Assembly (NCBI GenBank): GCA_023374045.1
Contig: CM041780.1
Coordinates: forward strand, 88,067,627 to 88,131,626
Reading direction: 5' to 3'
From: Limonium bicolor
Taxonomy: Eukaryota; Streptophyta; Magnoliopsida; Caryophyllales; Plumbaginaceae
Length of the DNA: 64,000 nt
Under the pieces are notes generated by a model. That model was not told where the DNA came from. It searched no databases and saw only the letters and a program-made list of their open reading frames with translations. How positions within the stretch are numbered: position 1 is the stretch's first letter; each line of letters begins with the position of its first letter. Position numbers and translations under genes: made by a program. Shown in pieces: positions 463 through 53,387 of the stretch.

Positions 463-1983
463 TAAATAATGAGGGAAACTTCGCTCGCATATCCGCTTCT
501 AGTTCCATGTGGCCTCTTCCACATCGTGGTTTGACCAAAGAACTTTTACTAGGCTCACAGATTTGTTTCGAGTATCTCGTGTCTTTCTGTCTAAGATTCG
601 TTGCGGGTTTCCACATACCGCATTGTTGGTTCTAATGAGAGTGTCTCTGGTTGTAGAACATGAGAAGGATGAGGCATGTATTTCTTAAGCTGAGACAGTG
701 AAAAACATTGTGTACTTTGCCCAACTCTGCTGGCAAATCAAGTCGATATGCCACAAGGCCCCCCGCTCTAATAGCGTAGGGTCCTACAAATTTCGGGCTT
801 AGCTTGCCCTTTTGCCCAAATCTGAATACACCCTTCATGGGTGATACTCGTAGAAAATACCTGGTCGCCAACAGCGAACTCAAGGTCTCGTCGCCTCTCA
901 TCAGCATATGATTTCTGTCTGTTGTGCTGCTTTCATGTTACTTCTGATTTGTTGTACTTCTGCTGACTTGCTCTAAGTACTCAGGCCCAATGATGACGGT
1001 CTCACTAGACTCGTCCCAGCACAATGGTGTGCGACATGGTCGTCTGCCATATAAGGACTTGGAAAGGTGACATCTGTATAGAGGCGTGATAGCTGTTATT
1101 GTATGCAAACTCGATGAGATGTAATCTATCTATCCAGCTACCCTGAAAATCCAAGGCACATGCTCGTAGCATGTCCTCTAAGGTCTGAATAGTCCTCTCT
1201 GACTGACCATCTTTCTGAGGATGAAATGCTGTGCTAAGCTTCAATTCAGTGCCAAGTGCTTCGCGAGTAGCTCGCCAATATCGTGAGAGAAATCTAGTGT
1301 CTCGATCTGAAACAATAGTCTTTGGTACTCCATGATGTCTGATAATCTCCTGCTCAAATAGTTCTGCTAACTTTGGCACTTTCCAAGTGTCTTCATCGGA
1401 ATAAAACCTAGCAACTTTAGTCAGCCGATCAACAACAACCCAAATCATATTAAGTCCTCCTCTCGTAGGTGGTAGTCCCACCACGAAGTCCATGGAGATA
1501 TCGTAAACTTCCACTCTGGAACTGGCATAGACTGTACCATACCTCCTGGTCGTCTATGTTCGAATTTCACTTTCTGACAAGTGAGACATCGAATCACTAT
1601 TCTGTCACGTCGCCCTTCATACCACTCCACCATAAATACCTCTTTAGATCTTTGTACATCTTAGAAGCTCCTGGATGGACAGATGTGGAAGAAGTGTGGG
1701 ACTCTCGAAGAATATGCTCCTTTATATCTGTGCTGTCTCTGGGTATACACAATCTGCCCTTCAATCTGATTAATCCATCATCATGTAGCTGAAACTCATA
1801 CTTTCCACCCTCAAATGTACCGTCAGACAACTTCTGACTGATCTCCATCATTCGCTGATCACTCTGCTGTGCGCTACGTATGTCGTCCATAAGACTCGAG
1901 CTAGCCACAATGGCATTTAGAGAATGTGCTCGTCGACTTAGTGCGTCTGCTACAACATTAGCTTTCCCTTCTTTGTACTGCAA
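463..1983 (-). pseudogene. pol: Element 1 RNase H end, integrase and chromodomain (frameshifted)
   Basis: From high to low coordinates the frames encode the RNase H tail (KEGKANVVADALS), the integrase zinc-binding part ([11 protein letters not shown], then CLTCQK), and the integrase core with the first Asp in DFVVGLP, the second in IVSDRDTRF and the Glu in QTLEDMLRA. A GPY/F module follows (KFVGPYAI at about 800), then a chromodomain remnant between about 590 and 470 that includes VKVLWSNHDVEEATW. Integrase inserts the cDNA, and chromodomains of this clade bias insertion to heterochromatin. Several frame changes (near 1600, 1500, 1000, 640 and 480) make it non-functional. It is closely similar to the element 3 integrase. 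Confidence 0.85.
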
Positions 1984-2064
1984 TCAATATCATAATCCTT
2001 AAGAATTCAACCCATCTTCTTGTCTCATGTTTAACTCCTTCTGGTGAATACATACTTCAAACTC

Positions 2065-3876
2065 TTATGATCCGAATAGATGGTCATCTGGACACCATAC
2101 AGGGTGGCGCCAGATCTTCAAGCAAAAACAATAGCTCCGCTCCAAGTCATGTGTGGGGTAGTTTTCCTCATGTTTCTTCAACTGTCGGGAAGCGAGGCGA
2201 CTACCTTCCCATTTTGCATGAGTACACACCCTAATCCTCTTTCCTGATGCATCACAGTAACTCTTCATAACCCCTCGTGCCTTCAGTATTGTCAAAACGG
2301 TGCTGATGTCACAGCGTTCACTCAAAAACTGAAATGATGATTCACACTCTGTAGTCCATGTGAATGGTGCATCTTTCTTCATTAAACTGGTCATAGGTTT
2401 TGCTAATTTGGAGAAGTCTCTGACAAACCTTCTGTAGTAACCGGCTAACCCCAGGAAACTCCTGATATCAGTCACTGTCCTTGGCCTAGGCCAACTGCGA
2501 ACTGCTTCTATCTTTGCTGGATCCACTGCGATCCCAGCATCTGAGATAACATGTCCTAAAAAGGAAACTCTGTCTAACCAAAATTCACATTTGGAGAACT
2601 TAGCATAAAGCTGGTTCTCCCTTAAGATCTCAAGTACATGTCGGAGGTGACTCTCATGCTCTTCCTTAGATTTTGAATAAATTAAGATGTCATCGATGAA
2701 TACAACCACGGTCTTATCCAGCTGCTCTCTGAATAATCTGTTCATCAAATCCATAAATACTGCTGGTGCATTTGACAAGCCAAAAGGCATAACTGTAAAT
2801 TCATAGTGGCCGTATCGTGTTCTGAACGCTGTCTTTTCTATGTCTTGCTCCCTGATAGGTATCTGATGGTATCCTGATCTCAAATCGATCTTTGAAAACA
2901 CTTTCGCTCCTCTTAACTGATCAAACAAATCATCGATTCGTGGTAGTGGATATTTGTTCTTTACTGATACTGCATTAAGCTCTCTGTAATCGATGCATAA
3001 CCGAAGGCTTCCATCCTTCTTTTTCACAAAAAGTACAGGTGCTCCCCAAGGAGATACGCTAGGTCGTATGTATCCCTTGTCTAATAAGTCTTTCAGCTGC
3101 TCCTTCAACTCAGCCATCTCTGCTGGTGCCATACGGTACGGTGCCTTAGCTATGGGACCGGTACCTGGTAGTAATTCAATGGAGAACTCTACCTCTCTGG
3201 GTGGCGGTAAGCCTGGAAGTTCCTTTGGAAAAATATCTGGAAATTCTGACACCACTGGCATATCTAGATCAAAATCAGGGTCGTGCTCTACATCCTGAAC
3301 ATAGCATAAGTATACTTCCTTCTGCTTCCTGACGTGTTTGTACATGGACATAGCAGATATCACCTTTATTGATGGTGCTCTAGGGCTCTGGCGGTATGAT
3401 ACTGTCACTCCTGATGGGCTCTTAAGTAACAGTCTGCGCTCTGCACAAAGAATGCGGCCTCTGTGCCGCCCCAACCAGTCCATCCCGGCTATAACGTCGA
3501 ATCCTAGACCTCTGAACTCAATAAGGTCAATGGGAAATTCCTCTTCCTTAATACGGATAGTGGCTCCTCTATAAAAACGAGTGCAACTGATCTTCTCCTT
3601 AGACGGGAGTGCCACCTTAAAATCAGGTAACTCTACAGCGTCTAGCCCCAACTTCCCCGCAAGCGTAGGCGAAACGAAAGTATGTGAGGCTCCGGAGTCG
3701 AATAGTACTACTGCGTCCACTCCATTAACAAGAAAGGTACCAGTGAGGATCGCGCCGCCCTTGCTGGCCTCCTCCTCAGTAAGAATACTTAAGGCACCTT
3801 CCGTCTCCTTAGCACAACCTAACAACAGAATCTGGGTAAGTACTCTGGTATATGTTGGAGGTCGACAAACATTCAC
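2065..3876 (-). pseudogene. pol: Element 1 protease, reverse transcriptase and start of RNase H
   Basis: A 603-codon open frame. It holds an aspartic protease with the active-site motif [10 protein letters not shown], a complete reverse transcriptase ([33 protein letters not shown], catalytic [11 protein letters not shown], then [16 protein letters not shown]) and the first part of RNase H (SYCDASG), after which the frame is lost near 2100-2300. RT makes the cDNA from the genomic RNA primed by initiator-Met tRNA. The ATG at 3876 is probably not the real start. A phase-1 splice acceptor ending at 3819 (minus strand TTGTTAG) would join this frame to gag, matching the acceptor in element 3. RT identity to element 3 is above 80% by eye. 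Frame loss in RNase H shows decay. Confidence 0.9.
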
Positions 3877-3941: not shown

Positions 3942-4679
3942 CTAGTACTTTCTAAAAGTCAAACTTAATCTTCCTGGTTTCATGTGAGTGGTGTTTATCA
4001 CTGTCGAAGGTGCTGTGTTTAGTTTGATCCTCTTAATTCCATGGTATAGCAACCTTGACTTTCCACCCAGTACTAAAACATCTCCTGAACTCAATATGAT
4101 TTTCTTTGCAAGGTCCATACGCTTCTGCTCGCCATAAAGGAACTCTGCGTCATCTCCAATTGACAAAGATAATACTGGTATCCCCTGTTCAAGGGACCCT
4201 TTTGTTTCATCATTGTCCTGGTGTAGTCCTAAACGGCCTCCTTCTTCATAGAAGTTGATGATACATAGATCAGCCCTTAGATTGGGAACTGGATCTTCTT
4301 CTAGCTGTTGAGCTGTATTAACTGCTTGTTCCACAATTGGTAAAAATTCTTCTGGGATTTTTGGTACTTGTGCTCCATCTCCATTTCTTGTATCTTGGTA
4401 GGTTTTTGTGTAAGGATTCCAATCCTTTCCTAAGCACATCATTTTCAGCTTCATCTTGATCCTCCTGGAAATTCTGGAGTGTAAACCCTCCTGGTCCTAC
4501 TCCCAATTCTAGACATTTTCTGATGATTGTAATTTGTGTCTCCGGTGTTAGGTATCCTTTGAGTAATATCAAACCTGGTTGGATAACCTTACATTGTTCG
4601 TTCCCTGGTTCTTGTATTTTGATAATGTTTTCTTCCAGGGAGGGCGGTGAGGGGATAGGAAAGCATATCTTATAGCTTC
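3942..4679 (-). pseudogene. AlkB-type Fe(II)/2-oxoglutarate dioxygenase domain inside element 1
   Basis: The open part (3942-4454, 170 codons) is a typical AlkB core: INFYEEGGRLGLHQDNDE with iron ligands H78 and D80, then SIGDDAEFLYG, SGDVLVLGG, the third ligand H138 in LLYHGI, and C-terminal R162 and R168 in RLSLTFRKY, positions that bind 2-oxoglutarate in this family. The upstream part (4456-4679) is also recognisable (VIQPGLILLKGYLTPETQI) but is offset by two apparent one-base deletions near 4484 and 4456 relative to element 3. AlkB proteins oxidatively remove methyl groups from DNA or RNA bases. The sequence resembles plant ALKBH1-like proteins more than viral AlkB, an impression from memory. 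It lies after the Gag zinc knuckles, before protease, on the element strand. A splice acceptor at 4680-4681 precedes it. It ends in its own stop (3942-3944). Confidence 0.9.
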
Positions 4680-4806: not shown

Positions 4807-6177
4807 CTGGGTTGGTAGAAGGACCAGCCTCATCTGAGCGGTCCATGACATGTAGGGCGGGTCCCGATGCTGGGCCTTTGCCCTTATACCCCTGAGCCTG
4901 GTTTGTTGGCGGAGGGCGAGTATCGCTAGCTCCATTCTTAGGGCCGGTGTTTGCCTTTGCTCCCGGGCGGTAGTTCTTGCTCTCCGGGTTTCGGATACAC
5001 TCGAAGGCCTGATGTCCAAGTATTTGACAGTGGCGACACTGAACTTTCTCCCCTTGGCAGTCCACGTCGGGGTGATCTTTTCCACACTGTCTACAGTTGA
5101 TACGGCGGACATACTTCTGGCCCGTGCTTGAGCCAGATCCAGAACCTAATACAATCAAGGTCAATTACACATTCTAACTGTACTGAAGTAATCTCACAAG
5201 CTTCAAATTTGACTGCTTGGTTAGAGTGCCTACCCTTAGGTGGGTAGGTTTTCTGTGATGTTGCCGCTCCGTGGGTTCCTGACTGGGGGTTCCCAGTAGT
5301 TTGGTTCCCCTTCCCTTGGTAGGACCCCTACCTTTCTGATAAGGTTTGTTCCTTTTGTTGGAGTTCCCCTGCTTAGCATCTTCGCCACCAGGTCCGTCCT
5401 TCCTCTTTTGGGAGCTCAAAGCATCCCTTCTCTTACATGTAATCTCCACCATGGAGGCAGCATGATAACATTCCTGAAATCTCAAGGTATCAATCTCCAA
5501 TTCTCCCATGACGGGGTATAGTAGATAATAAAATTTTCAACCGGTTTATGTCTCTCCTGTTTTACCTGTAAACTGGTAGGGATGATTGGTCCCATCCCAA
5601 ACTGGAGTCGAGGGCTCAGTCCCCCGTAGAATCGGTCGACCAACACTTGGTCCGAGTATCCTATACCGGGTAGTAGTCGGAGTAGCGAAGTGAACTTCGC
5701 ATAGTACTCATCCACTGACATCTTTCCCGTCTGCTCCAGGGCATCAAATCTCTCGTCTTCACCATCCTGGTGTGGGCCGGGTAGTATTTGCCCCTAAGTA
5801 GTGCTGTGTAGTGTCCCCAAGTAAAGCTGGGTCATCCAGGTGGTCGGCTTTCACCATGTTCACCAATCTCGCTGCATCCTTCAGATAAAAGGTAGCAAGC
5901 CTTACCTTTTCCCTAGCTGGGACTGCAAGCGTCTCGAACGCTGTCTCATCTCCATGATGTATGTCTCCAAGTGAGCAGGGTCAATCTGCCCCTTGAATGC
6001 AGTTGGCCTCAGATCAGCCAAACTCTTCACCCAATCTCTCTCCCTGGGTGGTGGTGGTGGAGGTAGCGTTGCGCTGTCCAACCGTCTGTGCAAATGCTGA
6101 GAGATTAAAGTAGCAAGTATGCCAGCCTAATGTTTGGTCCTCATCGGCCTGTCACGGCGTCCTCCTCTTCCTGACAT
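4807..6177 (-). pseudogene. gag: Element 1 Gag (interrupted, at least three exons)
   Basis: The start ATG (6175-6177) opens with MSGRGGRR, as in element 3 Gag, but meets a TAG after 16 codons. Further pieces in shifted frames carry the capsid-type Gag domain (VDEYYAKFTSLLRLLPG near 5700) and two zinc knuckles, CRQCGKDHPDVDC (CX2CX3HX4C) and CRHCQILGHQAFEC (CX2CX4HX4C), near 4990-5100. Candidate introns are at 5474-5575 (donor CAG|GTAAAA, acceptor TTTCAG|GAAT) and 5146-5233 (donor AAGG|GTAGGC, acceptor TATTAG|GTTCT), at the places of introns 1 and 3 in element 3; the element 3 intron 2 is not seen. Gag forms the virus-like particle and its knuckles bind the RNA. Internal frameshifts make it non-functional. 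Confidence 0.8.
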
Positions 6178-7131: not shown

Positions 7132-10100
7132 GAAATGTTCCGTCGCGACGTATAACTGAATAGGAGACGACCTGAGACAGGTACAACTCCTGTAGCATGC
7201 ATGGCCAGATCCAACTGGGCTCCTCGTTCTCGTAGTATAAAATTGTTAAGTGTCATATAAAGACGTTAAACAAGAACACAATGTGTATTGTCAATTATCA
7301 CGTTTAGGATAATGATGTTTATTATAAAGTGAAGTTAGTGAGAGAATTGAGTACAAGTCCTCGGTATACTGAAGCGCAGGTATTTAATCCACTGGTATAG
7401 TAGTGTTTGTATGCGTGGGACATACACGTTGTAGTCAGCATCATTCACGCACATAAAATTATACAACAGTGCACAAGAGTAAAACAACAGTTTACATTAA
7501 TTATCTTGGTCGTTATTTCAAACAACAGATAGCACACAAGCCGGTGTAATCCGGTAGAAAACAGGTTGCAAGAATCTCATACCGTTCACCGTAGACTGTA
7601 CTTGTTTAATTCCCGGTCAACGTCTGGTCAAACAAAGTCCTAGAATAGGATTAACTGAGAGGGTTAATTTATGTTACCCTTATATAATAATTCTATTGGA
7701 TCTTTTAACAAATCTCGTATTTGTTATTTCATGTGAGGTTTATTTCTTTTAATTACCTCATGATTTAATATATAACTTATTTGTTATTCCTTTTTGATTT
7801 ATTTATAAATCCTTTAATGTACATATATGTATTCATATATTCATGTACTATATTTGTTGTTTATTTTAATTGTCTAGGTGACATAACAACTTAAAATTTT
7901 CTTAACTGTATTTAAATGTCTTACAATGACATAATATTCTCATAATCTCATTATTCTCCTTTTAGTCATAAATAATATTTATTGTTCTCCTTTAACTTCC
8001 TTATAACTATATAAGCCATAGTTCTAATTCCATAATCCCTTTAATTAAAATTTTTTCTTCTAATTCCTCTAAATGTCCATATAGGACCTATCTTTATTTA
8101 AATGTAAATTATTACCCTTATATTTTGGTTATTTACAAAACAACCACATAAATTCATAAACTTTACATTTAAATTCTAATCTCTTTATATATCATAGTTT
8201 TAATTCCTTATTTAATTAAATCACAAAACTACCATTAATATTTTGGTATATACTTTTAAATATTGTAACTTTTGAAAATTACAACTTAGCCCCTCTTACG
8301 TCTCGGCCTATATATATATATTCCTTATAATTGCAATTTAGCCACAAAATCTTATAATCTTTACATAATGCCTTATAAACTATAGTTTTAATTCTAATTC
8401 TCCATAAATGCCGAATATATTTATATAAATTCTTAAATTACCAAACTAACCCCAAAGAATTTCGGCTTTGTCATTTAATCTTCCTTAATTACATTTTCAT
8501 CCCAAAACTTTATAATATCTTCTTAATAACTTATAAACTATAGTCTAAATATTTAATTCCTAAAAATTTCGAAGGTGAACCTATTAAATCTCTTAATTAT
8601 GAATTCGCCCCTTTTTATGTTCTAAACTTCCATAACAACTTTTATAAATTACATAATAGCCCAAAACTTTATAAAAAGTTATTTTAAAGCTTGTTTAAAT
8701 TATCTAAAATTCTTAAACTTAATTCCTAACCTTATATTATATCATAACTACACCAAACACCCCTTTAGCTCTCGGCTTTCACAATAAATGCACTATACTT
8801 TGTAAAAATTACATTTAAGCCACATAACTTAGTTAATTAGCCATTTAAGCACTAATAAAATATTTTTAACTCACCAGACTTTATAGTATAAGTTTATACA
8901 CATAAGTAGCTCATAAAAATCTATTTTCACTTAGGCAATTCGGCCATAATTAAATAGTTACTATATAGTATATAAAAGTGGATTTATATGTCATATAAAT
9001 ATACATAAATTCATAGGAGTCATACAACTCATGTATAAATTATTGTAATGTCTTATATAAATTCTTAGCTCAAGATAAGGTACTTTTGCCCTTGATAATT
9101 CGGCTTGGAAGTGTATGTAACTTAGGTAAATTTTGTGACACAAAAATGTGTCTTAAGGCAAATTTTTCCATATAAGTTATAGATTATATTTTTGGCATAT
9201 AATACTATATAGTTTTGGTTTTAACTAACCTAGGAGATGTACATAATTTTTGTGGAATTTTTAGAAGCTTAACAAAGCTTAAAACTTAAATATTAGCTTA
9301 GTAAACTTACTTCTTAACAAAGGTGGTTAAGTGCTTGAACTTCTTCTTGAATCTCCAAGCTTTCTCCAAGGTAATATTGATGCTCCACTTCGGTTATATG
9401 CAAGTGGTGAAGGTGTTTAGGAGTTAGATCTTCAATAAAGATCTTAAGTAGATTTGTAAGTAGTTTTACAAGAATTTACCTTAAGCTTTTTCCCTTATAA
9501 TTTCGGCTCACCAAAGGTAGATGAAGAACAAATTTTCCTTCATCAAAATGGAGAAGAAAAGGACCTTAGAAGAAGTAGAACTTGGTTACACATAAAAATG
9601 TGCTTTAAGGATTTTTCAAGCATTAAAACTACCTTAAGATAACCTTGAGATGCTCCTTGGATTAGTGTTGGTTTGGACAACGTCCTTGGATAACTAATTG
9701 ATGCCGAACCCTTGTTGATATGCTAGGAAGAGTTTTGCTTCAAGGTTTGACAAGAAATGCTAGGAAATTACCTTAAAGATGAAGATAGAAGTTAAAACTC
9801 CATTAATGGACTTAAGAGCTTCAAAGGAAGAAGATGAAGCAAGAAGAGAGAGGAGAGAGCCTTACCAATTCGTGGATGAAGAGGGCAAGGAGAAGAATGA
9901 GACTCACGAATTGTATAAGGTAAGAAAATGCATTTGGAATTTGATTTTTGCTTTGTCAATTTTTAATGTCAAATGACTTTACTTTTCCTTAGTTTATTAC
10001 ATGGTTTATTGGCTCAATAAATGCCCATGTTCTCTGCATAATTTCGGACATGTGGTGTGTGACAAGGCAAGAGTTGGAAAGAAAATGATTGTAAGCTAGA

Positions 10101-11253
10101 AGACAAGGTAAGAAAGGTAAGGTATATTCTCTTGATTTTTCTAAGTTAATGACTTGTCTTCTTCTTCATTGTGTTGCACGATTTCAAGGGCTGAATGGGG
10201 GTCTCAATCGGTGTTGAAGAGCCAAGGACAAGCATGTTAGGTCACATGGAAAAGAAGGAATAAAAAAAAAAGTGGATTCTAGATCTACTTTTTGCCTTTT
10301 CTCATTTGTTTTTGTTCTAGCTCACATGGCCTTATTCCATGGCCTAATTTCGACAGCTTGATGGTCAAATGAGACCTACATACTTTGACATTAAGTAATG
10401 TAACACATGGGAAGGTGAGTCACCATGTTCTATGCCTTTTATAAACTTTTAATGCAATTTTTGTACTAGTTTTTGCCCATAAATTCGGCCCCTATAGAGA
10501 GCCTTGTTGACTAGTCTCTCCAACGGATTTAGAAGTTCATTTTAACCCTATTTAAGATTACCAATTCGTGTCATGTCAAAAACTACAAGGCAATTGCGTA
10601 AAACGCGTTTTCTTGACACCCGAAGGTGTGTTTTTGTGCTCTAAGGAAATTTTGGGAAACAAATTGTTTTTATAAGTTCCAAGTGTTTGTAAACACTTAT
10701 TATAGTAAATAAACATATATTAAGATATTGCATTGGGTTATATTGGGTTATATCAACCCGTGACATAATTTACGGGCCATCGGGACACACCCGGGCAAAA
10801 AGGAGCGCTAAGAAATACTCCTGAGGTTTTTGTTGAATTTTGAGAAACTACTTCGTGGGTTCTCTTTAGAATGATTAATAATGATGTTAGGAACTCTAGG
10901 AATTAATTTTATAGGAGTTCGTGCCACCTCGGCACTCCTCTGGACTTTTCGTGCTTTAAGGAGCGGGCGTGAGCACTCCCGAGCATTTTGCGTATTTGAC
11001 TAAATATAGCCTTGGGAATATGTTTATATATTCATATAATGAGTGTATGACCATTTGGTTTAAGTTTTAGAAGGTCATACAAGGTCATGCTTGATCACAT
11101 GTTTCTAAGGCGTTTTAGCGTTTATGGAGAAACGACTATTTTTACGTAACGTTCTCATGCATGGGTTTGCATGCGTACGTGAAATGATTTATTTTTGAAT
11201 TAATTTCCATTAAATAATGGTTTAATAATATTAATTAGATTTGGGGTATTTCA

Positions 11254-26477: not shown

Positions 26478-26497
26478 GCACTTGCTATGGCAAGTGC
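26478..26497 (-). other. Perfect 8-bp palindromic hairpin shared with element 4
   Basis: GCACTTGC-TATG-GCAAGTGC. The stem, loop and a few flanking bases are identical in element 4 (61408-61427), although the surrounding sequence is divergent. Confidence 0.75.
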
Positions 26498-27076
26498 GCC
26501 ACGCTAACTGGCTATCGGTTCAACACATACCGGTTGTGGTATTGTTTTTACCCGTACTATCATCAGTGGCCTTGTTGGCCCTTATTTGTTCTTACGGTCT
26601 CGACAATAACCTTTGGGTAACTTCTCACTGTATTCACATAGTAGTTATCAACTGGGGTGTCTCCCATTCTTGGAGTCCCCTTTTACTTAGCATTATTTTC
26701 TCTTTGTAGCCCGTTCCACGCATCGTCGTGGTTACTGAGACTTGTCTCCTGTTTGGGCACTATGTTATAGTTCCTTAGTTGGTTGGCATACCGTTGGTGT
26801 ATCGCTTACCAACTGTGGTCCCATAGACATTCGTCTCGGGTTTCATTAATCCACTTCTTGCTTGTTGCACGGTCAGTGCGTTGCAAGCCGGTTGTTCTCG
26901 ACTGCTCGGCATGTCGACCCAGGTTGCTGGAAATTCTATTCTTCTATACACAAGATTCTTCATTCCTCGCTATTAAATGCGGTTAACATTGTTCAGATGG
27001 AGACCGTCTCCGGGATTTCCAGTTTTCGGGATCTACCGTATGACAGGTCTTCCGTACTTAAAGGTATTTAATAACA

Positions 27077-27123
27077 GCCAGATCGGGTTTTCCCGAGTAA
27101 GAGAGGACTTTCATCTCTCTGGC
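27077..27123 (-). other. 47-nt three-way-junction-like element, element 2
   Basis: Outer stem GCCAGA/TCTGGC encloses TCGGG/CCCGA (27083-27096) and a GAGA/TCTC arm (27101-27117). Element 4 has the same layout in 47 nt, with a different tetraloop and a repaired third arm. It lies 186 nt from the primer site in element 2 and 187 nt in element 4. A packaging or dimerisation signal is a reasonable guess. Confidence 0.65.
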
Positions 27124-27294
27124 GTTCTTTCCCAAGTTATAAAACAGGGATTGTGGAGGGCGGGAAGGATATTGTAGGTTTCCAGTATTCACTGGTAGTT
27201 CCTATCTAGCGTATCTCTCACGCTATCACTCAACCCTTAACCCAAAGTACTTAAATCCTAACTCGGTACTTCCTAAGCTCGGTAATTCAGTCAT

Positions 27295-27320
27295 CAGAGC
27301 GATACTTCGCTCTGATACCA
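27295..27320 (-). promoter_or_regulatory. Initiator-Met primer-binding site within a hairpin, element 2
   Basis: TGGTATCAGAGC on the minus strand of 27309-27320. The surrounding stem CAGAGCGA/TCGCTCTG (27295-27314) has a TACT loop. The last stem pair differs from elements 1, 3 and 4 on both arms together. Confidence 0.95.
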
Positions 27321-27325
27321 CTTTT

Positions 27326-30300: not shown

Positions 30301-31802
30301 GCAAGCATTATAAGCTCATTTCTCCTAAGGCATTATACCACATTGAGATAGCATATTTACCTCTTTTCCACTCAAACTTCCTTCTTGTTTCCTCTTAAAA
30401 CCGGTAAGGCATTTCACTCCTTGTCAACTACTTAACAGTATACAAACATCATAATGAGTATTCAAGCTTTAAGCTCCATCTCATTGTAAACCCTAATTAC
30501 ATATATTGTTTTAACACATCAAGGTAATTGTTTTACCTTTGAATGGAAAGAGAGCTTGAATGAGTATCAAGAGAGGACTCCTCCTAGCCCTTGGAATGTT
30601 TAAATGAAGTTAAAACAAGACAAGAGAAGACACCATTACAAGGTGCATTTTCGGTCAGCACCAAAAATGAAGGAAATGGAGTTTTCTTTGGTTTTTCTTT
30701 ACCTTGAAGCAAAGGTGATCAACAAGGCATAAAAATATTAGCTCAAGCTCCTTCCATGGAAGCTCTCTTGGCACCGAAATGGTGGTTTTGATGATTTGAA
30801 AAGACAATGTTGTAGAGCTTGCTCCAACTAAGAGAACGGTAGTCTCGGAATTAAATTCGGAGCATGTAGTCATAAGTTACAAGTGAAGAAGGATGAAGAA
30901 TGATATGGTTCTGTTGGAAACCGATGGAGAGAGGAGAAGAAGATGGCCACCGTGGGAAATGAAGAAAGGAATGAGAGAATGAAGATAACCTTTGCTTTTT
31001 GAAGATATTTGTTCTTTAAAGCAAATAGTACATTAATTAGTCATTCTTTCTTTTCTAGTAAATTAACAAGGGTGGTGAGTCACCACACCTTAAAAACCGG
31101 CCCCCAATAGTACCTAGGGGTATTTTAGACTTTATTAATCAATTGTCTCACTTATAACATTATATGTTACAAACTAGCTTATTAAGGTTACTATTCACAA
31201 AAACAAGGCACATAGAAGTGAAATTTTTGATTTCCCATTGATATAGCCACCCAAATGTGATACTATATAGTACATGTTAATTAAAAGTAATGATGGACAT
31301 TTAGCCATTCAAAACTCATTTACAAGACAATTTTTCAAAAACGTGCTTTAGACTTCTTAAAGCACATTTGTGTTTTAACTTGTTTTCAAGCTTGTTGGTT
31401 TTTTTTAGTAATTGATTTAATATGTTCATTAACATATAAATAAGGCATAGGTATGACCATTAGGTATTATACACATTTATCCCAAGCTTAGAGCACATTT
31501 TAGCCCATATGACCTTAAGGTATTTATTGTGTTTTGTTTGGTTTCATTGTCTACCAAAGTTTCCTAAGGACTTAATTAGCCTTACAAAGTCATAATTAAA
31601 TATTATCAAGTCTTGGTAGGCTCTTTGGGTCCTAGCCAAGTTCACTCCAACCTTAGAGCATGTTTTTGCTCAAACCGTGTCTTAGTGTTTTATTGTGTTT
31701 TACCATGGTTTAAATGGTTCATTTATGTTTCTAAGGCACTTTTTAGCCTTTAAATACCATAGTTTAACATTTACACAACATACCAAGGTTTGGGGTATTT
31801 CA
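27326..31802 (-). repeat. 5' LTR of element 2 (4477 bp)
   Basis: The same family and order of features as the 3' LTR at 17856-22336, differing by a small number of substitutions and short indels. The hairpin array is at 29310-29487. It ends at 31802 and is followed by the CTACC duplication. Confidence 0.93.
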
Positions 31803-36189: not shown

Positions 36190-37541
36190 TACAAGTATCA
36201 CAGCTACTACTCGAAGAGTGCGGGATACTTCGCTCTCATGGAGTCCTCTAACTCCCATGTAGCCTCCTCCACCTCATGGTTGACCATAGAACCTTGACCA
36301 TGCTAACGGTCTTGTTCCTAGTCTGTCTCGTCTTCGTATCGAGAATGCGGAGTGGTACTTCCTCATATCGTAGAGCGGGGTCCAACTCTAAAGTCTCTGG
36401 CTGTAACACGTGCGATGGGTGGGGCACATACTTCTTCAACTGTGAAACGTGAAAGACGTCGTGCACCCTCCCGAGCTCTACTGGCAAATCCAGTCTGTAG
36501 GCTAACGGGCCCACTCGCTCCCTAATTGCATAAGGTCCAACATACTTTGGGCTCAACTTGCCCTTCTGCCCAAACCGGAAGATCCCCTTCATGGGTGACA
36601 CTCTGAGGAATACCATGTCGTCAGTAGTGAACTCAATGTCCCTCCTCTTGGTGTCTGCATATGATTTCTGCCGGTCCTGAGCTGATTTCATGTTCTTACG
36701 AATCTGTAGGACATCCTCCTTAATCTGCTCTAGGTACTCAGGTCCTAGAAGCGTATTCTCGCTGGCCTCATCCCAGCATAGAGGAGTCCTACATGGTCTA
36801 CCGTATAGTGCCTGAAACGGTGGCATCTGTATCGAGGAGTGGTAGCTGTTGTTGTAGGCGAACTCTATCAGATGTAGTCGCTCTAACCAACTCCCCTGAA
36901 AATCTAAGGCACATGCTCTCACATGTCCTCCAGTGTCTGGATGGTCCTCTCACTCTGACCGTCGGTCTGTGGATGGAATCGTACTAAGCTTCAACTTTGT
37001 ACCAAGGCTTCCTGAACCTGACCCCAGAATCTAGACAAAATCGAGGGTCCCTATCAGACACAATGGTCTTTGGCAATGGTGCCGGATCACCTCCTTCTGG
37101 AACAAGTCCGCTAACTTCGGGACCTTCCAGGTATCCTTCATAGCCACAAACTTTGCCACCTTCGTCAGACGGTCCACAATGACCCAAATCGTGTTCAGTC
37201 CTCCCTTAGTCGGTGGGAGACCGACAACGAAATCCATCGAGATGTCCTCGAACTTCCAGCAAGGAATAGGCATAGACTGCACTAAACCGCCGGGTCTCCT
37301 ATGCTCAAACTTAACCTTCTGACAGGTCAAGCATCTAGTCACGTAGTCAGCTACATCCTTCTTCATCCCGCTCCACAATAAATGGACCTTTAAGTCCTTG
37401 TACATCTTCGAAGAACCGGGGTGGACGGATAAGGACGAGCAATGAGCCTCCTGGAGTATCTTCTCCTTCAAATCTGGAGAAGACTCGAATACATAACCGG
37501 CCATTCAGTCGAATCATGCCATCATCACAGTTCGAAGTCAT
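36190..37541 (-). pseudogene. pol: Element 3 integrase, GPY/F module and chromodomain (frameshifted)
   Basis: Pieces read the zinc-binding part ([27 protein letters not shown]), the core with the first Asp in [11 protein letters not shown], a second Asp region broken by frameshift near 37090 (DRDPRF), and the third-residue region LDFQGSWLERLHLIEFAYNN. Then come the GPY/F module (KYVGPYAIRERVGPLAYRLD) and a chromodomain (ILDTKTRQTRNKTVSMVKVL) whose end (VEEATWELE) lies in another frame near 36270. Frame breaks occur near 37525, 37430, 37090, 36920 and 36290. Function and order match element 1. The chromodomain type supports the Tekay clade. Confidence 0.88.
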
Positions 37542-39183
37542 ACTTCTGACTCTCGAAGCAACCCTCTATCATCTTCTGCCTGATACTCTCCATGTACTGG
37601 TCACTCTCCTGTGCAGCTCGTATCTCATCAATCATACTGCTGCTCGCTAACAGTGTAAATAATGAATGAGCTTTGTGGCTCAGGGCGTCGGCTACTATAT
37701 TCGCCTTGCCCTCCTTGTACCTCAGGTCAATGTCGTAGTCCTTCAAGAACTCGACCCATCTTCTCTGTCGCATGTTCAGCTCCTTTTGAGAGAAGAGATG
37801 CTGTAAACTCTTGTGACCAGAGTAGATAGTGACTGTCACACCGTAAAGATAATGTCGCCGGATCTTCAAAGCAAAGACTACTACGCCTAACTCAAGGTCG
37901 TGTGTGGGGTAATTCACCTCATGCTTTTTCAGCTGTCGGGAAGCGTAGGCAACTACCTTTCCGTGCTGCATAAGCACACAACCTAGACCGGTTCCAGAGG
38001 CATCACAATATACCTCGAACCCATCAGTGCCCTCAAGAATAGTAAGAACGGGTGCCGATGTCAGGAGATCCTTCAGTGTCTGAAAGGACTGCTCGCACTC
38101 TACAGACCATAAGAACTGGGTCTCCTTCTTCATGAGATTAGTCATCGGTTTGGCCTCTTTGGAGAAGTCCTTCACGAACCTTCTATAGTAACCGGCCAAA
38201 CCCAGAAAGCTGCGGACATCAGTAACTGTCTTTGGCATTGGCCAACTCTTCACTGCCTCAATCTTAGCAGGGTCTACAGATATCCCGTCTGCTGATATGA
38301 TGTGTCCTATAAATGACACGCTGTCTAACCAGAACTCACACTTCGAGAGCTTGGCATATAGCTGGTTCTGTCTCATGATACTCAAAACCTGTCTCAAATG
38401 TAACTCATGATCTTCCCTGGTCTTTGAATAGATCAGAATATCGTCGATGAAGACCACCACTGATCTATCAAGCTGTTCTCTAAAGAGACGGTTCTTCAAA
38501 TCCATGAAAATAGCTGGTGCATTCGTCAACCCGAATGGCATAACGGTGAACTCGTAGTGTCCATACCGTGTCCTGAAAGCTGTCTTCTCTATGTCACCCT
38601 CTGCAATCCTAATCTGATGGTAGCCAGATCTGAGGTCTATCTTTGAGAACACACTGGCCCCTCTCAGCTGGTCAAATAAGTCATCTATCCGTGGTAACGG
38701 GTACTTGTTCTTGACCGTGACCGCATTAAGCTCGCGGTAGTCGATGCAGAGTCGCATACTGTCGTCCTTCTTCTTGACGAATAATACTGGAGCACCCCAA
38801 GGAGAAACACTAGGTCTAATGAATCCCTTGTCGAGGAGGTCCTCCAGCTGTAACTTCAGGTCCCTCATCTCAGCCGGTGCCATACGGTAGGGTGCCTTAG
38901 CAATTGAGCCCGTACCTGGCAATAAGTCGACGGCGAACTCAACCTCACGCACAGGCGGCATGCCTGGCAACTCATCAGGAAACACATCGGGAAAGTCTGC
39001 CACGACTGGAATGTCTACATCCATCTCGTCGCACTGTCTCGTGTCCTGTACATAACAGAGGAAGGCTTGTCGGCCCTTCCTAACGTCCTTCATCAGGGAC
39101 AATGCTGACACGATCTTGACAGTCGGCTCTCTCCTCACACTGCGGTACGACACTGTCTTGCCGCTCGGCCCCTTCAGTAGTAG
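37525..39183 (-). pseudogene. pol: Element 3 reverse transcriptase and RNase H
   Basis: A long open frame directly after an in-frame TGA (39184-39186) that separates it from protease; element 1 has Arg codons there, so a C-to-T change of CGA is likely. RT motifs are complete: [50 protein letters not shown]. RNase H shows [23 protein letters not shown] and [15 protein letters not shown]. The motif [12 protein letters not shown] has Gly where I expect the catalytic Asp of this family, so RNase H may be dead. A frameshift ends the frame at 37525, before integrase. Confidence 0.9.
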
Positions 39184-39602
39184 TCAATGCTCTGCACAAT
39201 GTAGGCGGCCCTTATGCTTCTGCAGCCAATCCATACCCACTATAATGTTGAAGCCCAAGTTATTAAACTCAATCAAATCGATGGGAAAAGTCTCATTCAT
39301 AATGCTGATCTCCGACCCTAAGTACTGCCTGGTGCAACCTACTCTCTCCTTCGATGGAAGGGTGACTAAAAAGTCAGAAAGCTGTTCGGGGGCAGCCCCT
39401 AGCTTCTTAGCAAATGCCGAGGAAATAAAAGAATGTGAAGCCCCTGAGTCGAACAATACGGAAGCACTAACACCATCAACAGGAAAGGTACCTGAGATTA
39501 CCTCTCGCATTAGCATCGAGTCCCAATAAATCACTAACTTACTGTCGGTTGTAATTGTCATACCTGTGATGACATTACCGGACTCCCTGGCTTGCGCCAT
39601 AT
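39184..39602 (-). pseudogene. pol: Element 3 aspartic protease
   Basis: Active-site motif [12 protein letters not shown], then FNNLGFNIIVGMDWLQKH. The frame ends at the TGA at 39184. The minus strand GCATCCTAG|ATATGG offers a splice acceptor with exon start at 39602 in phase 1, the phase in which the Gag zinc-knuckle exon ends. It would process Gag-Pol. It starts only 159 nt downstream of the AlkB stop, in a separate reading context. Confidence 0.87.
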
Positions 39603-39760
39603 CTAGGATGCAGATGGTACCCTCCTTTCCATTTCTGTAGCCTGAAGTTATGAATTAACGGTATCAACAAACTGAACACATATACTTGAAAGTACAAGAC
39701 TCTTATTTCATTCATTCAACTGTTTTATACAAGGTTACACACTTAGCCACTGTTATTACA

Positions 39761-40500
39761 TCAGTACTGTCTGAAAGTCAAATTTAAACGGCTAGGTCGG
39801 ATGTGGGTATCATTCACTAGGGCTGGTGGGGCGGTATTGAGCTCAATGCTCTTAATACCATGGTATACAAGTCTCGCCTCTCCACCAAATACCAACACAT
39901 CCCCAGACTTGAGGATGATCTTGCTTGCTAGATCCATCCTCTTCTGGTCTCCATAGATGAACTCAGCATCATCGCCGATGGAGAATGACACAACCGGTAT
40001 TTCTCTGGTGATGGACTCGGTCGTCTCATCACGGTCCTGGTGCATCCCAAGCTTTCCTTCCTGCTCGTAGTAGTTGTTGATGCAAACGTCAGGTGTCATG
40101 TCGGGTAATGGAAAAGTCTCACAGTCTTGAGCAATATCCATTGCGTTTCTCACCATGGTTAGGAAACTCTCAGGTATCCTAGGAATAGATACGCCACCTA
40201 CCATCCTCACCTCTCGATAAACCCTAGCTTGTGGATCTCAATCTTTTCCTAAGCACATCATGTGCAGTTTCATTTTAGAACCATTATTAAATATAGGGGT
40301 ATAAAATCCTCCTATGCCCTTACCCAAAGCTCTACACTCATTCACTATGGCGATTTGCTCATCTAGGGTTAGGAATTCTCTGAGAAGTATCATGCCCGGT
40401 CTGACCACATGACACAACTCGCTAGGGTACTCCCGTCTTTCTTCCACGGGTCTAGGTGATCTCTGTCTTGTAAGTGTGGGATAGCAGATGTCGAAGTCTC
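39761..40500 (-). pseudogene. AlkB-type dioxygenase exon of element 3 (one in-frame TGA)
   Basis: A 740-nt exon from the acceptor CTCTTAG|GAGAC to the stop at 39761-39763. The N-terminal part has VVRPGMILLREFLTLDEQI and a conserved MKLHMMCLGKD; a TGA follows (40238-40240) where element 1 has Trp. The catalytic part is open for 149 codons: NNYYEQEGKLGMHQDRDE with H57 and D59, SIGDDAEFIYGDQKRMDLA, SGDVLVFGG, H117 in LVYHGIK, R141 and R147 in RLNLTFRQY. Its full length, about 245 residues, is normal for a single-domain AlkB. AlkB enzymes demethylate nucleic-acid bases using Fe(II), oxygen and 2-oxoglutarate. It is about 60% identical by eye to the element 1 copy over the core. The catalytic residues are unbroken; the TGA is probably a late mutation. 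A captured host ALKBH1-like gene is the most likely origin. Confidence 0.92.
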
Positions 40501-40630
40501 CTAAGAGGTAACATGTTTCTTAGATAAGTTGTTTATCTAAAGTGGTAATTTAAACACGCATTCATGCTAAGGTAAAATGTTTAACACTTAGTCATGCTCT
40601 CATACAATGGTTAAGGTTTCAAATGCTAAC
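40501..40630 (-). other. Candidate intron joining gag to AlkB, element 3
   Basis: Donor GTGAAG|GTTAGC at 40630, acceptor CTCTTAG|GAGAC at 40501, 130 nt, phase 1 on both sides. With this intron removed, the summed exon lengths (675+131+125+357+740) are a multiple of three ending exactly at the AlkB stop. Confidence 0.7.
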
Positions 40631-42174
40631 CTTCACCGCGCTGGGTACTAGTGCCAGCGCCCGAAGCTCCCGCTGCATTCAGCACACGGTTGCCCGGCGG
40701 GTTTCTCTGGTTCTGGTTCTGCTGTTGCGGCTGCTGATGCTGCTGCTCCCTCTGGGCTTGGGGCGCCGGCCCCCTCTGGCCACCTCGAGCTCCACCTCCT
40801 CCAGTAGGTGCGCTCAGAGTCCCCTTCGGCGGGCGGTACGCTCGGCTCTCTGGATTAGCAAAGCACTCGAATGACCTGTGGCCTTTCTTTCCACAATGGT
40901 GGCAGTCCACCGCTTGCCCGGTGTAGTCAACACCCGGGTGGTCTTTACCACAGCGCTTGCAGTGAAAGTGGCGCTGGGGTGTAGAACCTATTATCATATC
41001 ACACTCAGATTAATACAAGGACGGTAATGGATAGTATAGTACACAACTCATTCACAAGGTTAGATCGCTTACCCTTAGGGGGTGCAGATCTAAGAGGCTG
41101 AACATCGTAGGTAGGCCCGGTCAGCATCGGGACCTTCTCTTTGCCCTTCTGGCTGGCCTGCTCCTTCTTCTTCTCCTTCCAAGAGAACTTTTTCTTCCTG
41201 TGATCGTCAAGTGTCAGGAGTAGCAGGTATAAAAGCAGGCAGCAAGTAAGTAATTTAAATGGATTAAATAACTTAAAGGTGGTTCTTACTTCCAACCCTT
41301 GCTGCTTCCGCTTCCAGCCTCAACCTCCGCCGCCTTCTCGGGGGCCTTACGCTTCTGCCCCTGGTTGTCCTCCCGGCTGTTCACCAACAGCTCGGTCCGA
41401 GAAGCAGCTTCGTAGCATTCCTATATTGCATCAATGAGTTCCCCGAACTTGTAATAAATCAAACTGAGTTACAAGGTATAATCTGTCAACTAATTTTACC
41501 TGGATCGTAGGGTATAAGGCAGCACCCATGGCGGCCGTGATAGCATATCGCAACCCGCCTCTAAATTTCTCCACTTTCACAGTATCGGAATAAACAACTC
41601 CCGGGACAAAGTCCAAGAGCCCAATAAAAGACGAGTAGTACTGATCTACTGTCAGACTACCCAGCCTCAGGGCCTCGAACTCTTCCCGCTTCCTCTGCTT
41701 CAAATGAGCAGGATAGTACTTCTCTCTCAATAATTCCACAAAGCCTGTCCAACCAAAACCCTCTATAGCGGTGTAGTGTGCCTTCACGGACCTCCACCAA
41801 GTGCTGGCGGCATCCCTCAGATGGAAGGCTGCTATACCGACCCGGTGCTCAGCGGACACATGAATGGCATCGAAGGCCTTCTCGTGCTCAACAATGTATC
41901 TCTCCAGGACGGTGGGGTCAGCTACTCCGTCATATGTAGGTACTCGCGTGTCAGCAACGCTCTTTAGCCAGTTCGCCTCTCTCGGTGTGGGTACAGGTGG
42001 GACTACCGGTGGTGCTCCTATCTGGACACCCCCCAACAGGGCTAGCTGAGCAAAGACGGCAGCTACCGTCTCAGCAACGCCCACGGCTGGGGCCTCAGGA
42101 GGACCTCCTCCAGGCCCGCCGCCGCTTCCACCACCTCCTCTACCTCTGCCAGTCGAACGTCTTCCAGAAGACAT
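40631..42174 (-). CDS. gag: Element 3 Gag, four exons, open
   Basis: Exon 1 (41500-42174) starts MSSGRRSTGRGRGGGG and holds the capsid-type Gag domain (STWWRSVKAHY, FVELLREKYYPAHLKQRKRE, LTVDQYYSSFIGLLDFVPG). Exon 2 is 41290-41420, exon 3 41073-41197, exon 4 40631-40987. Introns are 41421-41499 (CAG|GTAAAA...TATAG), 41198-41289 (GAA|GTAAGA...CACAG) and 40988-41072 (AGG|GTAAGC...AATAG), 79-92 nt each. Phases 0, 2 and 1 match throughout, so no stop interrupts the joined frame. Exon 4 has two zinc knuckles, one with the spacing CX2CX3HX4 but Tyr for the last Cys (CKRCGKDHPGVDY), the other intact (CHHCGKKGHRSFEC). The tail is Gln- and Gly-rich. Gag packages the RNA. Exon 4 ends in phase 1 and could continue into AlkB or protease. 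Confidence 0.82.
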
Positions 42175-45378: not shown

Positions 45379-45391
45379 CATTTGTGGACTT

Positions 45392-46330
45392 GGGCTGGAT
45401 TGGGTTAATGGGCCGAGTTGGGCTGATGGGCCGAGATAGGGTTTGGGTCATGGGCTTTGGGCCAAGTGTGGGTATTTGGGCCGAGATTTGTTTTGGGTCA
45501 AGTGTGGGCATTTGGGCCGAGATTTGTTTTGGGTCAAGTGTGGGCATTTGGGCCGAGTTGGGCTGATGGGCCGAGATTGTGTTTGGGTCAAGTGTGGGCA
45601 TTTGGGCCGAGTTGGGCTGATGGGCCGAGATTGTGTTTGGGTCATGGACTTTGGGCCAAGTTTAGGTATTTGGGCCGAGAGTGGTCTTGGGCCACGTGTG
45701 GGCATTTGGGCCGAGATGGGCTGATGGGCCGAGATTGTGTTTGAGTCAAGTGTGGGCATTTGGGCCGAGTTGGGCGTGGGTCATGGACTTTGGGCCAAGT
45801 TCGGGTATTTGGGCCGAGAGTGGTCTTGGGCCACGTGTGGGCATTTGGGCCAAGATGGGCTGATGGGCCGAGATTGTGTTTGGGTTATGGACTATGGGCC
45901 AAGTTTGGCTGATGGGCCGAGATTGTGTTTGGGTTATGGACTTTGGGCCAAGTTTAGGTATTTGGGCCGAGAGTGGTCTTGGGCCACGTGTGGGCGTTTG
46001 GGCCGAATTTGTTTTGGGGTGAGTGTGGGCACTTGGGCTTGGATCATGGGCTTCGGACCACGGTCTGGACTTGGGCTGAGATGATTTGGGCCGAGATGGC
46101 TTGGGCCGGGTCGATATGTAATTGGGTCGTGGGTTTTGAGTTTCGGGTCATGGATTTCGAGTTTTGGGCCACGGGTTTGGGTTCGGGCCGAGATGGTTCT
46201 GACATCAAGTTTGGATTTGACTTAATGGGCTGGGTCAAGGCAATTAGGCCAGGCGTAGACTTGGGCCGAGATGGTTTGGGCCGAGAGTGGTCTTGGGCCG
46301 AGGTTTGGACTTGGGCCGGGTTGAACGGAT
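45392..46330 (+). repeat. Degenerate tandem array of gggccgag-type units
   Basis: About 0.9 kb built from short words: gggccgag, ttgggctgatgggccgag, gtgtgggcatttgggcc, ggactttgggccaag. Units combine into longer periods of about 60 bp and longer, and become less regular after 46030. Open frames on both strands are products of the period and should not be taken as proteins. Confidence 0.9.
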
Positions 46331-52622: not shown

Positions 52623-52938
52623 TGTAACACCCCAACTTAATCCAATTGTGGTCTCGCAACTTAACAACATATATACATACATGTCACAGCGGAATTCTTT
52701 ACAATCCAGGACCTTGCCACGGTCTGACTACAGAACATACCGAACGTTAGTACATAACAACCTTAACCAAATACATATTCTTCTTACAATCCTCTCACAA
52801 CCTATACATCTTACTAACTCAATTGCCATACGAGTGTACATGCACAACTCGTAGGTCACACTTAATCCTTAACACTTGTATCCTCTTCTTACTCTTGCGA
52901 CGGCCGCCTCCTGATGTACACCTGTGTAGTAAAAACAG

Positions 52939-52966
52939 CCCCCAAAGGGGGTCAGCACGAATGCTG
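52939..52966 (-). other. Tandem double hairpin in LTR of element 4
   Basis: CCCCC-aaa-GGGGG (52939-52951), then CAGCA-CGAA-TGCTG (52953-52966). The same layout is in element 2 (18243-18270) and element 1 (6683-6712). Confidence 0.6.
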
Positions 52967-53230
52967 GTATGATCCCCTCATGGCCCCCAAGCTAACGTGG
53001 CTACGACGACTAATTGTCGATAGCATGGAGGTTGATTAGATGCACAACATAATAGTAAATGCTGTAAACAACAATCCATATATGAACAATCAAAGTTCAC
53101 ACACAATGAACGACTTAAATGCGTTCCCTTAATTGGAGAGTTAGTTATTTAACTCCTTAAGTAATGTTCCCTCTTAACCTTAGTCCATCCTTATCTCACC
53201 TTAATCTTAGTCTTATCTTAACCTTAGGAA

Positions 53231-53387
53231 CAACCATCCTTTAATAAGGAGTGGATGTCGCTTATCTTAATCTTAATTATACAAACCATCCTTTAATAAG
53301 GAATGGTTGCAACTTATCTTAACCTTACCTTAGCCTTAATCTTAACTTAATCTCAATATACAAACCGTTCCTGGAAGGGAATGGTTG
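53231..53387 (-). repeat. Three tandem hairpin units in LTR of element 4
   Basis: Units around aaccatcctttaataagga, with imperfect stems AACCATCC/GGAATGGTT and AACCGTTCC/GGGAATGGTT. They start about 605 bases from the LTR end and recur in the 5' LTR at about 62990-63145. Confidence 0.7.

What the first reader, a model, noticed from the sequence alone, without database searches (positions are those of the whole stretch)
39761..40500. A chromovirus family carries an AlkB demethylase domain between Gag and Pol
Seen: two separate elements (this copy and 3942-4679) carry a full AlkB domain on the element strand at the same site, after the Gag zinc knuckles and before protease. Both keep H-x-D, the distal His and the terminal Arg pair, and are about 60% identical by eye over about 140 residues. 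Known: AlkB enzymes remove methyl groups from DNA or RNA, AlkB domains occur in some plant RNA viruses, and Ty3/gypsy elements normally lack them. Inferred: an ancestor captured a host ALKBH1-like gene and kept it under selection, perhaps to erase m6A/m1A on its RNA or methyl marks on cDNA and so escape silencing. I know of no described chromovirus lineage with this layout, but could not search.
Basis: partly seen in the sequence, partly recalled or inferred. Interest (0 to 1): 0.95.

Follow-up and report, generated by a model that had tools for sequence, protein, structure and literature searches.

The report
AlkB-carrying plant retrotransposons with introns
A numerous family of plant jumping genes has taken up a host enzyme of a kind that strips methyl groups from nucleic acids and kept it under selection, apparently as an optional spliced segment between its shell protein and its copying enzymes; a different case of such a capture was known from orchids.

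Summary
Both window elements carry an AlkB (PF13532) exon between the Gag zinc knuckle and protease (60% identical over 144 aa), but the named copy has an in-frame stop and the other a broken frame. Elsewhere the domain is widespread: 149 of the 150 best-scored hits have no stop inside the match, and in 22 of 22 copies examined Gag or protease pieces lie beside it. LTR pairs in four copies are 95.0-98.3% identical. Element AlkBs form one clade (100/100) apart from 70 host ALKBH1C/1D-type proteins; their reverse transcriptases form one clade among relatives without AlkB: one capture, then co-inheritance. dN/dS between two subfamilies is about 0.11; seven catalytic residues are kept in 21 of 21 copies. 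New: Gag is split by intron-like gaps, and the NC donor is in phase with both an AlkB and a protease acceptor, suggesting splicing to Gag-AlkB or Gag-Pol; 2 of 19 copies lack intron 2, one exactly. AlkB-bearing gypsy elements are published from orchids (PMC9289625), with an ALKBH5-type domain in Tat/Ogre elements; this looks like an independent capture. New variant of a known kind. Substrate and RNA splicing untested.

The parts
39761..40500 (-). Copy 2 (W2): AlkB exon with its own stop; one in-frame TGA inside, so not open in this copy
40501..40630 (-). W2: intron-like gap from NC donor (GT) to AlkB acceptor (AG), phase 1; 31.5% GC, 34% T
40631..40987 (-). W2: NC exon with CCHC zinc knuckle (PF13917 match below the curated cut-off)
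40988..41072 (-). W2: intron 2-like gap
41073..41420 (-). W2: linker exon, placed by its splice-like borders (the linker probe gave no match in W2)
41421..41499 (-). W2: intron 1-like gap (phase 0)
41500..42174 (-). W2: Gag capsid exon (PF03732)
39642..39760 (-). W2: T-rich stretch from AlkB stop to the protease acceptor (AG); would go with AlkB when NC is joined to protease
39046..39641 (-). W2: protease exon (PF08284)
37534..39045 (-). W2: reverse transcriptase and RNase H
36248..37504 (-). W2: integrase and C-terminal SH3/chromodomain region (frames broken in this copy)
3942..4679 (-). Copy 1 (W1): AlkB exon; frame broken in its N-terminal part, C-terminal 170 aa open
4807..5145 (-). W1: NC exon
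5234..5473 (-). W1: linker exon
5566..6033 (-). W1: capsid exon (3 stops inside)
3295..3818 (-). W1: protease exon
1792..3294 (-). W1: RT and RNase H
529..1734 (-). W1: integrase to chromodomain region
7836..11253 (-). W1: 5' LTR; its partner lies just left of the window (L029 6524-9941), 98.3% identical over 3434 columns; W1's target duplication was not resolved

Best explanation
A chromodomain-bearing Ty3/gypsy retrotransposon lineage captured one host ALKBH1C/1D-type (OsALKBH1 branch) coding stretch, with no intron inside it, between Gag nucleocapsid (NC) and protease. The domain diverged under purifying selection as the element multiplied (supported by trees, dN/dS and catalytic residues). 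It is an alternative terminal exon: the donor after NC is in phase with an AlkB acceptor (Gag-AlkB, ending at AlkB's stop) and with a protease acceptor about 1 kb further on (Gag-Pol, AlkB skipped). The unspliced RNA is the genome that is copied (inferred). As a Gag fusion the enzyme would be carried into the virus-like particle and would remove methyl groups from adenine in the element's own single-stranded RNA or cDNA. That would lift an m6A/6mA-type restraint or mend alkylation damage (inferred; substrate not tested).
For: Domain, recurrence and layout. Single origin: AlkB tree, 13 element-type rows against 70 host-type rows, split 100/100. RT tree: 8 AlkB elements form one group (SH-aLRT 98, quick method) among 104 relatives; 0 of 120 listed pol relatives have an AlkB match (their length is limited by the search), and in P0186 and P0187, from the nearest group, NC is followed by protease after 45 and 65 residues. 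Both trees set W2 apart from the W1/L009/L014 and L011 groups. Selection: omega 0.109 (L009-L011, dS 1.78), 2dlnL 138 against omega = 1. Variants shared by 2 or more of 17 main-type copies have pN/pS 0.18, against 0.48-0.73 for private variants in PR, RT and RH (16 copies). Seven catalytic residues kept in 21 of 21. Fold of P0002: TM 0.93 by target length (0.75 by query) to OsALKBH1 5xeg, 0.57-0.59 to ALKBH5. Splicing: GT-AG gaps at the same places and phases in three subfamilies; gaps have 31-37% GC against 40-63% in exons and 28-38% T against 12-29%; 2 of 19 main-type copies lack intron 2, L015 exactly and L027 with one base more lost. Rice ALKBH1 acts on 6mA in single-stranded or unpaired DNA (PMC10469495, passages).
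Against: No RNA data: no spliced NC-AlkB or NC-protease junction was seen. No copy lacks intron 1 exactly or intron 3; only intron 2 loss was found. The genome-wide count of spliced junctions could not be run (genome search gave no answer). Copies were picked by AlkB Pfam score, so intactness and private-variant ratios in AlkB (0.21) are biased. The closer pair W1-L014 has omega 0.37 (dN 0.045, dS 0.12); RT is under stronger constraint (0.02-0.07 in most unsaturated pairs). W2 pairs are saturated in dS, so their low omega is not a measurement. Both window copies are broken. The tree tool warned of long branches (H_P0053 with the element rows; H_P0037), and the tree has no outgroup. Substrate inference is by homology only; the element clade lies apart from the host proteins on a long branch, so activity may differ.
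Confidence: 0.6

Rival explanations
1. Same capture, but AlkB is made as a separate protein (own start codon, reinitiation or a subgenomic RNA), not as a Gag fusion; the GT-AG gaps serve only Gag and Pol, or are partly decayed.
For: In the orchid elements AlkB is in a separate ORF2 (PMC9289625). The AlkB exon has internal ATGs.
Against: The AlkB acceptor is in phase with the NC donor in three subfamilies. In L003 and W2 the frame is open upstream of the first ATG to the acceptor (W2 has a TGA further on) and includes an FDIC/FNIC-type motif that host proteins share.
Confidence: 0.25
2. RNA or DNA repair rather than an epigenetic role: the enzyme mends m1A/m3C-type damage in element RNA or cDNA, as postulated for AlkB of plant RNA viruses.
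For: Fold and sequence are also close to E. coli AlkB (TM by target length 0.82-0.90; 83 bits). The repair idea for viral AlkB is cited in PMC9289625.
Against: The nearest relative is OsALKBH1, described as a 6mA demethylase. Neither substrate was tested here.
Confidence: 0.3
3. Passenger: a captured exon carried along by a successful element without function.
For: AlkB is under weaker constraint than RT; W1-L014 omega 0.37; the two window copies are broken.
Against: omega 0.11 between subfamilies at dS 1.8; shared-variant pN/pS 0.18; catalytic set intact in 21 of 21; retention in three subfamilies.
Confidence: 0.05
4. The same lineage as the published orchid AlkB elements, not a separate capture.
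For: Both are very abundant Ty3/gypsy elements with an AlkB domain.
Against: The orchid domain is ALKBH5-type, the RT Tat/Ogre, the PBS tRNA-Arg (PMC9289625). Here ALKBH1C/1D type, chromodomain, PBS TGGTATCAGAGC. The orchid sequence itself was not at hand for a joint tree.
Confidence: 0.02

Closest known systems
Gypsy_Pa_2799 and kin, Phalaenopsis Tat/Ogre elements with AlkB (PMC9289625)
   Same: Ty3/gypsy LTR element, very abundant, with a captured AlkB 2OG-Fe(II) oxygenase that keeps catalytic residues; in vitro m6A demethylation shown there
   Different: There: ALKBH5-type AlkB at the end of a separate ORF2, Tat/Ogre RT, 25.5 kb, 6.4 kb LTR, tRNA-Arg PBS, Gag-Pol in one ORF. Here: ALKBH1C/1D-type AlkB exon between NC and protease, chromodomain, TGGTATCAGAGC PBS (tRNA-Met type by recall), LTRs of 3.4-4.9 kb where measured, Gag split by intron-like gaps
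Plant ALKBH1C/1D, rice OsALKBH1 (5xeg/5xoi)
   Same: About 50% identity, same fold (TM 0.93 by target length), same catalytic set, FDIC-type motif upstream
   Different: Host proteins mostly have a longer N-terminal part; element copies form their own clade
Tekay/Del-type chromoviruses
   Same: Order gag-PR-RT-RH-INT with chromodomain, long LTRs, Met-type PBS (lineage placement recalled, no named reference in my tree)
   Different: AlkB exon and split Gag; relatives P0186 (Bienertia) and P0187 (Cuscuta) pass from NC to protease without AlkB
Spliced LTR elements: Ogre, BARE1 (PMC3735527 and PMC6317226, passages)
   Same: Splicing of a subset of transcripts decides between products of the element
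   Different: No captured enzyme as alternative exon; the passages describe one intron in each
AlkB of Flexiviridae and Closteroviridae (as cited in PMC9289625)
   Same: AlkB domain in a plant parasite with an RNA genome
   Different: RNA viruses; their AlkB was not compared here

Membership tests
Chromovirus (Ty3/gypsy) | gag-PR-RT-RH-INT order | tested here: met
   L023 and L025 show only part of it
Chromovirus (Ty3/gypsy) | chromodomain after integrase | tested here: met
   2 of 2 copies given: PF00385 E 2.2e-5, 24.7 bits (L010) and E 4.1e-4, 20.7 bits (L026), both under the curated cut-off of 25.1; right position after SH3_Tf2-1
Tekay/Del clade | RT groups with named Tekay references | not tested
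   no named reference set; RT tree used database relatives only
AlkB 2OG-Fe(II) oxygenase | HxD...H, RxxxxxR, N-x-Y | tested here: met
   21 of 21 copies
ALKBH1C/1D (OsALKBH1) branch | closest by sequence and fold | tested here: met
ALKBH1C/1D (OsALKBH1) branch | demethylase activity on 6mA single-stranded DNA | not testable with these tools
   inferred from PMC10469495 passages
Orchid AlkB gypsy elements | ALKBH5-type domain | tested here: not met
   nearest is ALKBH1C/1D; ALKBH5 structures rank far lower
Orchid AlkB gypsy elements | tRNA-Arg primer site | tested here: not met
   TGGTATCAGAGC after the 5' LTR of L026; that it fits tRNA-Met is recalled
Orchid AlkB gypsy elements | Tat/Ogre RT with dual RNase H | tested here: inconclusive
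   chromodomain present; no Tat reference in the tree; dual RNase H not looked for
Spliced LTR element | GT-AG gaps with conserved phase | tested here: met
   phases read by eye
Spliced LTR element | spliced RNA | not testable with these tools
   only the indirect sign of intron 2 loss in L015 and L027

The most novel reading that the evidence does not exclude
A retrotransposon toggles by alternative splicing between Gag-Pol and Gag-AlkB, so that a captured DNA-adenine-type demethylase is packaged in the particle and cleans the element's RNA or nascent cDNA of adenine methylation before integration. This would be a second, independent and mechanistically different answer to the pressure met by the orchid elements, and would point to nucleic-acid methylation as a general restraint on plant retrotransposons.
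Probability: 0.3. Interest if true: 0.88.

Novelty: new variant of a known kind. Interest (0 to 1): 0.72.

Why it matters
Two plant retrotransposon lineages that each took up a different AlkB branch and kept it under selection would be convergent evidence that methylation of element RNA or DNA restrains transposition. The captured ALKBH1-type branch, linked in rice to DNA 6mA, makes the question of what plant 6mA demethylases act on testable with an element-borne enzyme. The intron layout gives a concrete, checkable model of how a retroelement can express an accessory enzyme without disturbing Gag-Pol.

Tried and rejected
Rejected: two separate captures (one AlkB clade and one RT group); identity with the orchid lineage (no joint tree); chance match; neutral passenger. 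Led nowhere: IMG/VR scan with the AlkB protein, no relative; Rfam scan of the window, no match; LTR pair of the W2 copy not found inside the window, and for L016 only a 631-base pair; first script stopped with an error. NG86/YN00 estimates for distant pairs saturated or failed (its W1 row was out of frame at the start) and were replaced by a pairwise maximum-likelihood codon model, where dS of many RT, PR and CA pairs and of the W2 pairs is saturated and must not be read as numbers. The search with an alignment of element-type AlkBs listed only P0001-P0004, the query's own members, above the host-type proteins (120 of 1,783 hits listed; P0121, next in score, is a host-type protein with two AlkB stretches); retroelement proteins are often left out of annotation, so this says little on distribution. 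Not done, because the genome search did not complete: species of the genome (matK), RT-picked sample, junction counts, host ALKBH1 gene of this genome.

The 70 host rows of the AlkB tree were the first 70 of 116 listed proteins other than P0001-P0004; some of them are unnamed. In that tree W2 pairs with P0002 and the other 8 element rows group with P0001/P0003; W1 entered with its open C-terminal part only. Counts of copies leave out L023 (rearranged) and L025 (mis-centred) where the region was missing. The automatic junction table failed for diverged copies and for exon ends with indels, which were read from the alignment instead.

Full report
The window lies in a 2.92 Gb genome with eight very large contigs, a plant by its protein relatives, not named. 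Two elements on the minus strand are relevant: W1 (window 1 to about 11,253, running out at the left) and W2 (about 36.2-42.2 kb), which is the finding. Both have the order capsid, linker, NC, AlkB, protease, RT, RNase H, integrase (the W2 linker is placed by its borders only). The AlkB stretches score E 1.9e-32 and 2.4e-40 against PF13532 and are 60% identical over 144 residues. W2 has one in-frame TGA. W1 is out of frame in its N-terminal part.

In the rest of the genome the domain is common. A six-frame search scored 150 of 38,325 first-look candidates; all 150 passed the Pfam cut-off, and 149 had no stop inside the match. These are the best 150, so intactness is biased and the total is unknown; stops outside the matched part occur (L010). 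I examined 22 of the 150 (L009-L028, L004, L007; L001 and L003 are the same places as L009 and L011). All 22 have Gag or protease pieces of the same element beside AlkB. LTR pairs were found for W1, L014, L015 and L026, 3.4-4.9 kb with 95.0-98.3% identity; that is 0.7-2.0 My at an assumed 1.3e-8 per site and year, or 1.2-3.7 My at 7e-9 (rates recalled). For L016 only a 631-base pair was found, for W2 none inside the window. L026 has a TTACT target duplication, a TGGTATCAGAGC primer site and a purine tract. A chromodomain follows the SH3-like part of integrase in both copies tested, under Pfam's cut-off (24.7 and 20.7 against 25.1 bits).

The AlkB belongs to the plant ALKBH1C/1D branch. In 5.8 billion proteins the four best hits are unnamed (P0001-P0004, 59-71% identity); the named ones among the 120 listed are plant AlkB-like proteins at about 43-55% identity, several named ALKBH1C- or ALKBH1D-like. 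The best solved sequence is 5xeg (E 1.9e-70), with E. coli AlkB at 1.3e-22 and animal ALKBH1 at 2e-11. An AlphaFold model of P0002 (pLDDT 86) matches OsALKBH1 5xeg with TM 0.93 by target length and 0.75 by query length, ALKBH5 with 0.57-0.59 by target length. [quoted passage not shown] that 5xeg is that gene's product rests on the PDB title. Seven catalytic residues are kept in 21 of 21 copies.

One origin is supported twice. In a tree of 83 AlkB rows the 13 element-type rows are split from 70 host-type rows with 100/100; W2 pairs with P0002 (99/93), and the other 8 element rows group with P0001 and P0003 (99/96); P0004 is loosely placed. P0001-P0004 are unnamed proteins from public contigs, so the family probably exists in other plants. 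The tree has no outgroup, so the donor lineage is open, and the tool warned of long branches (H_P0053 beside the element rows). In an RT tree of 112 rows the 8 AlkB elements form one group (SH-aLRT 98, quick method, no bootstrap), next to 7 relatives that include elements of Bienertia and Cuscuta. In P0186 and P0187 NC is followed by protease after 45 and 65 residues. This indicates that AlkB was inserted at this place after the split from them.

Selection: the L009-L011 comparison has dN 0.193, dS 1.78, omega 0.109; L014-L011 0.111; W1-L011 0.117; pairs within the main type 0.19-0.27; within the W1 type 0.19 (L009-L014) and 0.37 (W1-L014). W2 pairs are saturated. RT in pairs that are not saturated is 0.02-0.07, with one exception (L021-L011, 0.27). 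Variants shared by at least two main-type copies have pN/pS 0.18 in AlkB (17 copies), 0.09 in PR, 0.06 in RT, 0.09 in RH (16 copies each). Private variants have 0.48, 0.67 and 0.73 in PR, RT and RH, and 0.21 in AlkB, the last biased by selection on Pfam score. So AlkB is constrained on lineages that replicate, less than RT.

Architecture. Capsid, linker, NC, AlkB and protease are separated by short GC-poor gaps that begin with GT and end with AG and often change frame. Gaps have 31-37% GC and 28-38% T; exons 40-63% GC and 12-29% T (three copies). In the alignment of 21 rows, 19 of 20 comparable rows keep GT and AG of gap 1 (L020 has a deletion; L023 is not comparable there). The NC donor is GT in 21 of 21, the AlkB acceptor plain in 20 of 21 (L020 altered) and the protease acceptor AG in 21 of 21 (W2 by its own coordinates). 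By reading the codons, gap 1 is phase 0, gap 2 phase 1, and the NC donor is phase 1 with both the AlkB and the protease acceptor, in the L011, W1 and W2 types. AlkB ends with its own stop before the protease acceptor. Of 19 main-type copies, 17 keep gap 2 (L021 with one base lost at the donor) and 2 lack it: L015 exactly, L027 with one further base missing. Loss at the exact borders is what a reverse-transcribed spliced RNA leaves. No copy has lost gap 1 or gap 3 that way, so splicing of those two, and the choice between AlkB and protease, is inference.

Most likely working: unspliced RNA is packaged and copied; spliced RNAs give Gag-AlkB or Gag-Pol. As a Gag fusion the demethylase would sit with the element's RNA and cDNA. 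Supported here: the domain, its kin, one origin, constraint, conserved splice-like borders, intron 2 loss. Inferred: alternative splicing at NC, fusion, packaging, substrate, benefit.

Relation to what is known. AlkB in gypsy elements was reported in 2022 from Phalaenopsis (PMC9289625: abstract, text parts 1-3 of 7 and two further sections, on homology and the discussion): Tat/Ogre elements of 25.5 kb, ALKBH5-type ORF2 with m6A activity in vitro, detected in two Phalaenopsis genomes and in no other of the 121 screened. The present family differs in element clade, AlkB branch, placement and layout. My ten answered paper searches listed no chromovirus with AlkB that I could see in titles, abstracts or the passages read; most subscription papers and all preprints are not held. 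Splicing in LTR elements is known from Ogre and BARE1 (PMC3735527 and PMC6317226, passages). A 2025 review mentions the orchid case in the passages seen (PMC12786077). Two further papers were seen in passages, on Retand elements (PMC11963269, no AlkB in the text) and Retrosat2 with its ORF0 of unknown function (PMC3485330, not searched for AlkB).

Verdict: a real second kind of AlkB-carrying plant retrotransposon with an unusual intron-like layout; new variant of a known kind.

Noticed in passing
window 17856-31802: LTR pair (98.9% identical, 4.5 kb LTRs, TSD CTACC, same primer-site type) around a 5 kb interior without an ORF of 150 aa; several LTR pieces 79-86% like DNA from the AlkB-element loci: a non-coding element perhaps moved by them.
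   Followed up: partly
window 52623-54239 and 62382-64000: Second repeat pair, 99.1% identical, cut by the window's end, starting like the LTRs of the pair at 17856.
   Followed up: no
G000:C1:497439466-497470353: Four AlkB hits spaced 10.04-10.12 kb, as in a tandem array of elements sharing LTRs.
   Followed up: no
L026, L028, L024 against L011: Capsid dS (0.9-1.5) is far above AlkB or RT dS (0.1-0.4) in the same pairs, as if gag segments had been exchanged between lineages.
   Followed up: no
L023: AlkB copy in a rearranged element: 2.3 kb direct repeats of 98.6% flank part of NC, AlkB, protease and part of RT only.
   Followed up: no
P0187 (Cuscuta europaea): Polyprotein without AlkB begins almost at the position of the NC exon here, so the Gag introns may be older than the AlkB capture.
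   Followed up: no
P0121 (Artemisia annua): Annotated host-type protein with two near-identical AlkB stretches in tandem.
   Followed up: no
window 45391-46038: Tandemly repeated stretch upstream of W2, copies about 78-85% alike.
   Followed up: no
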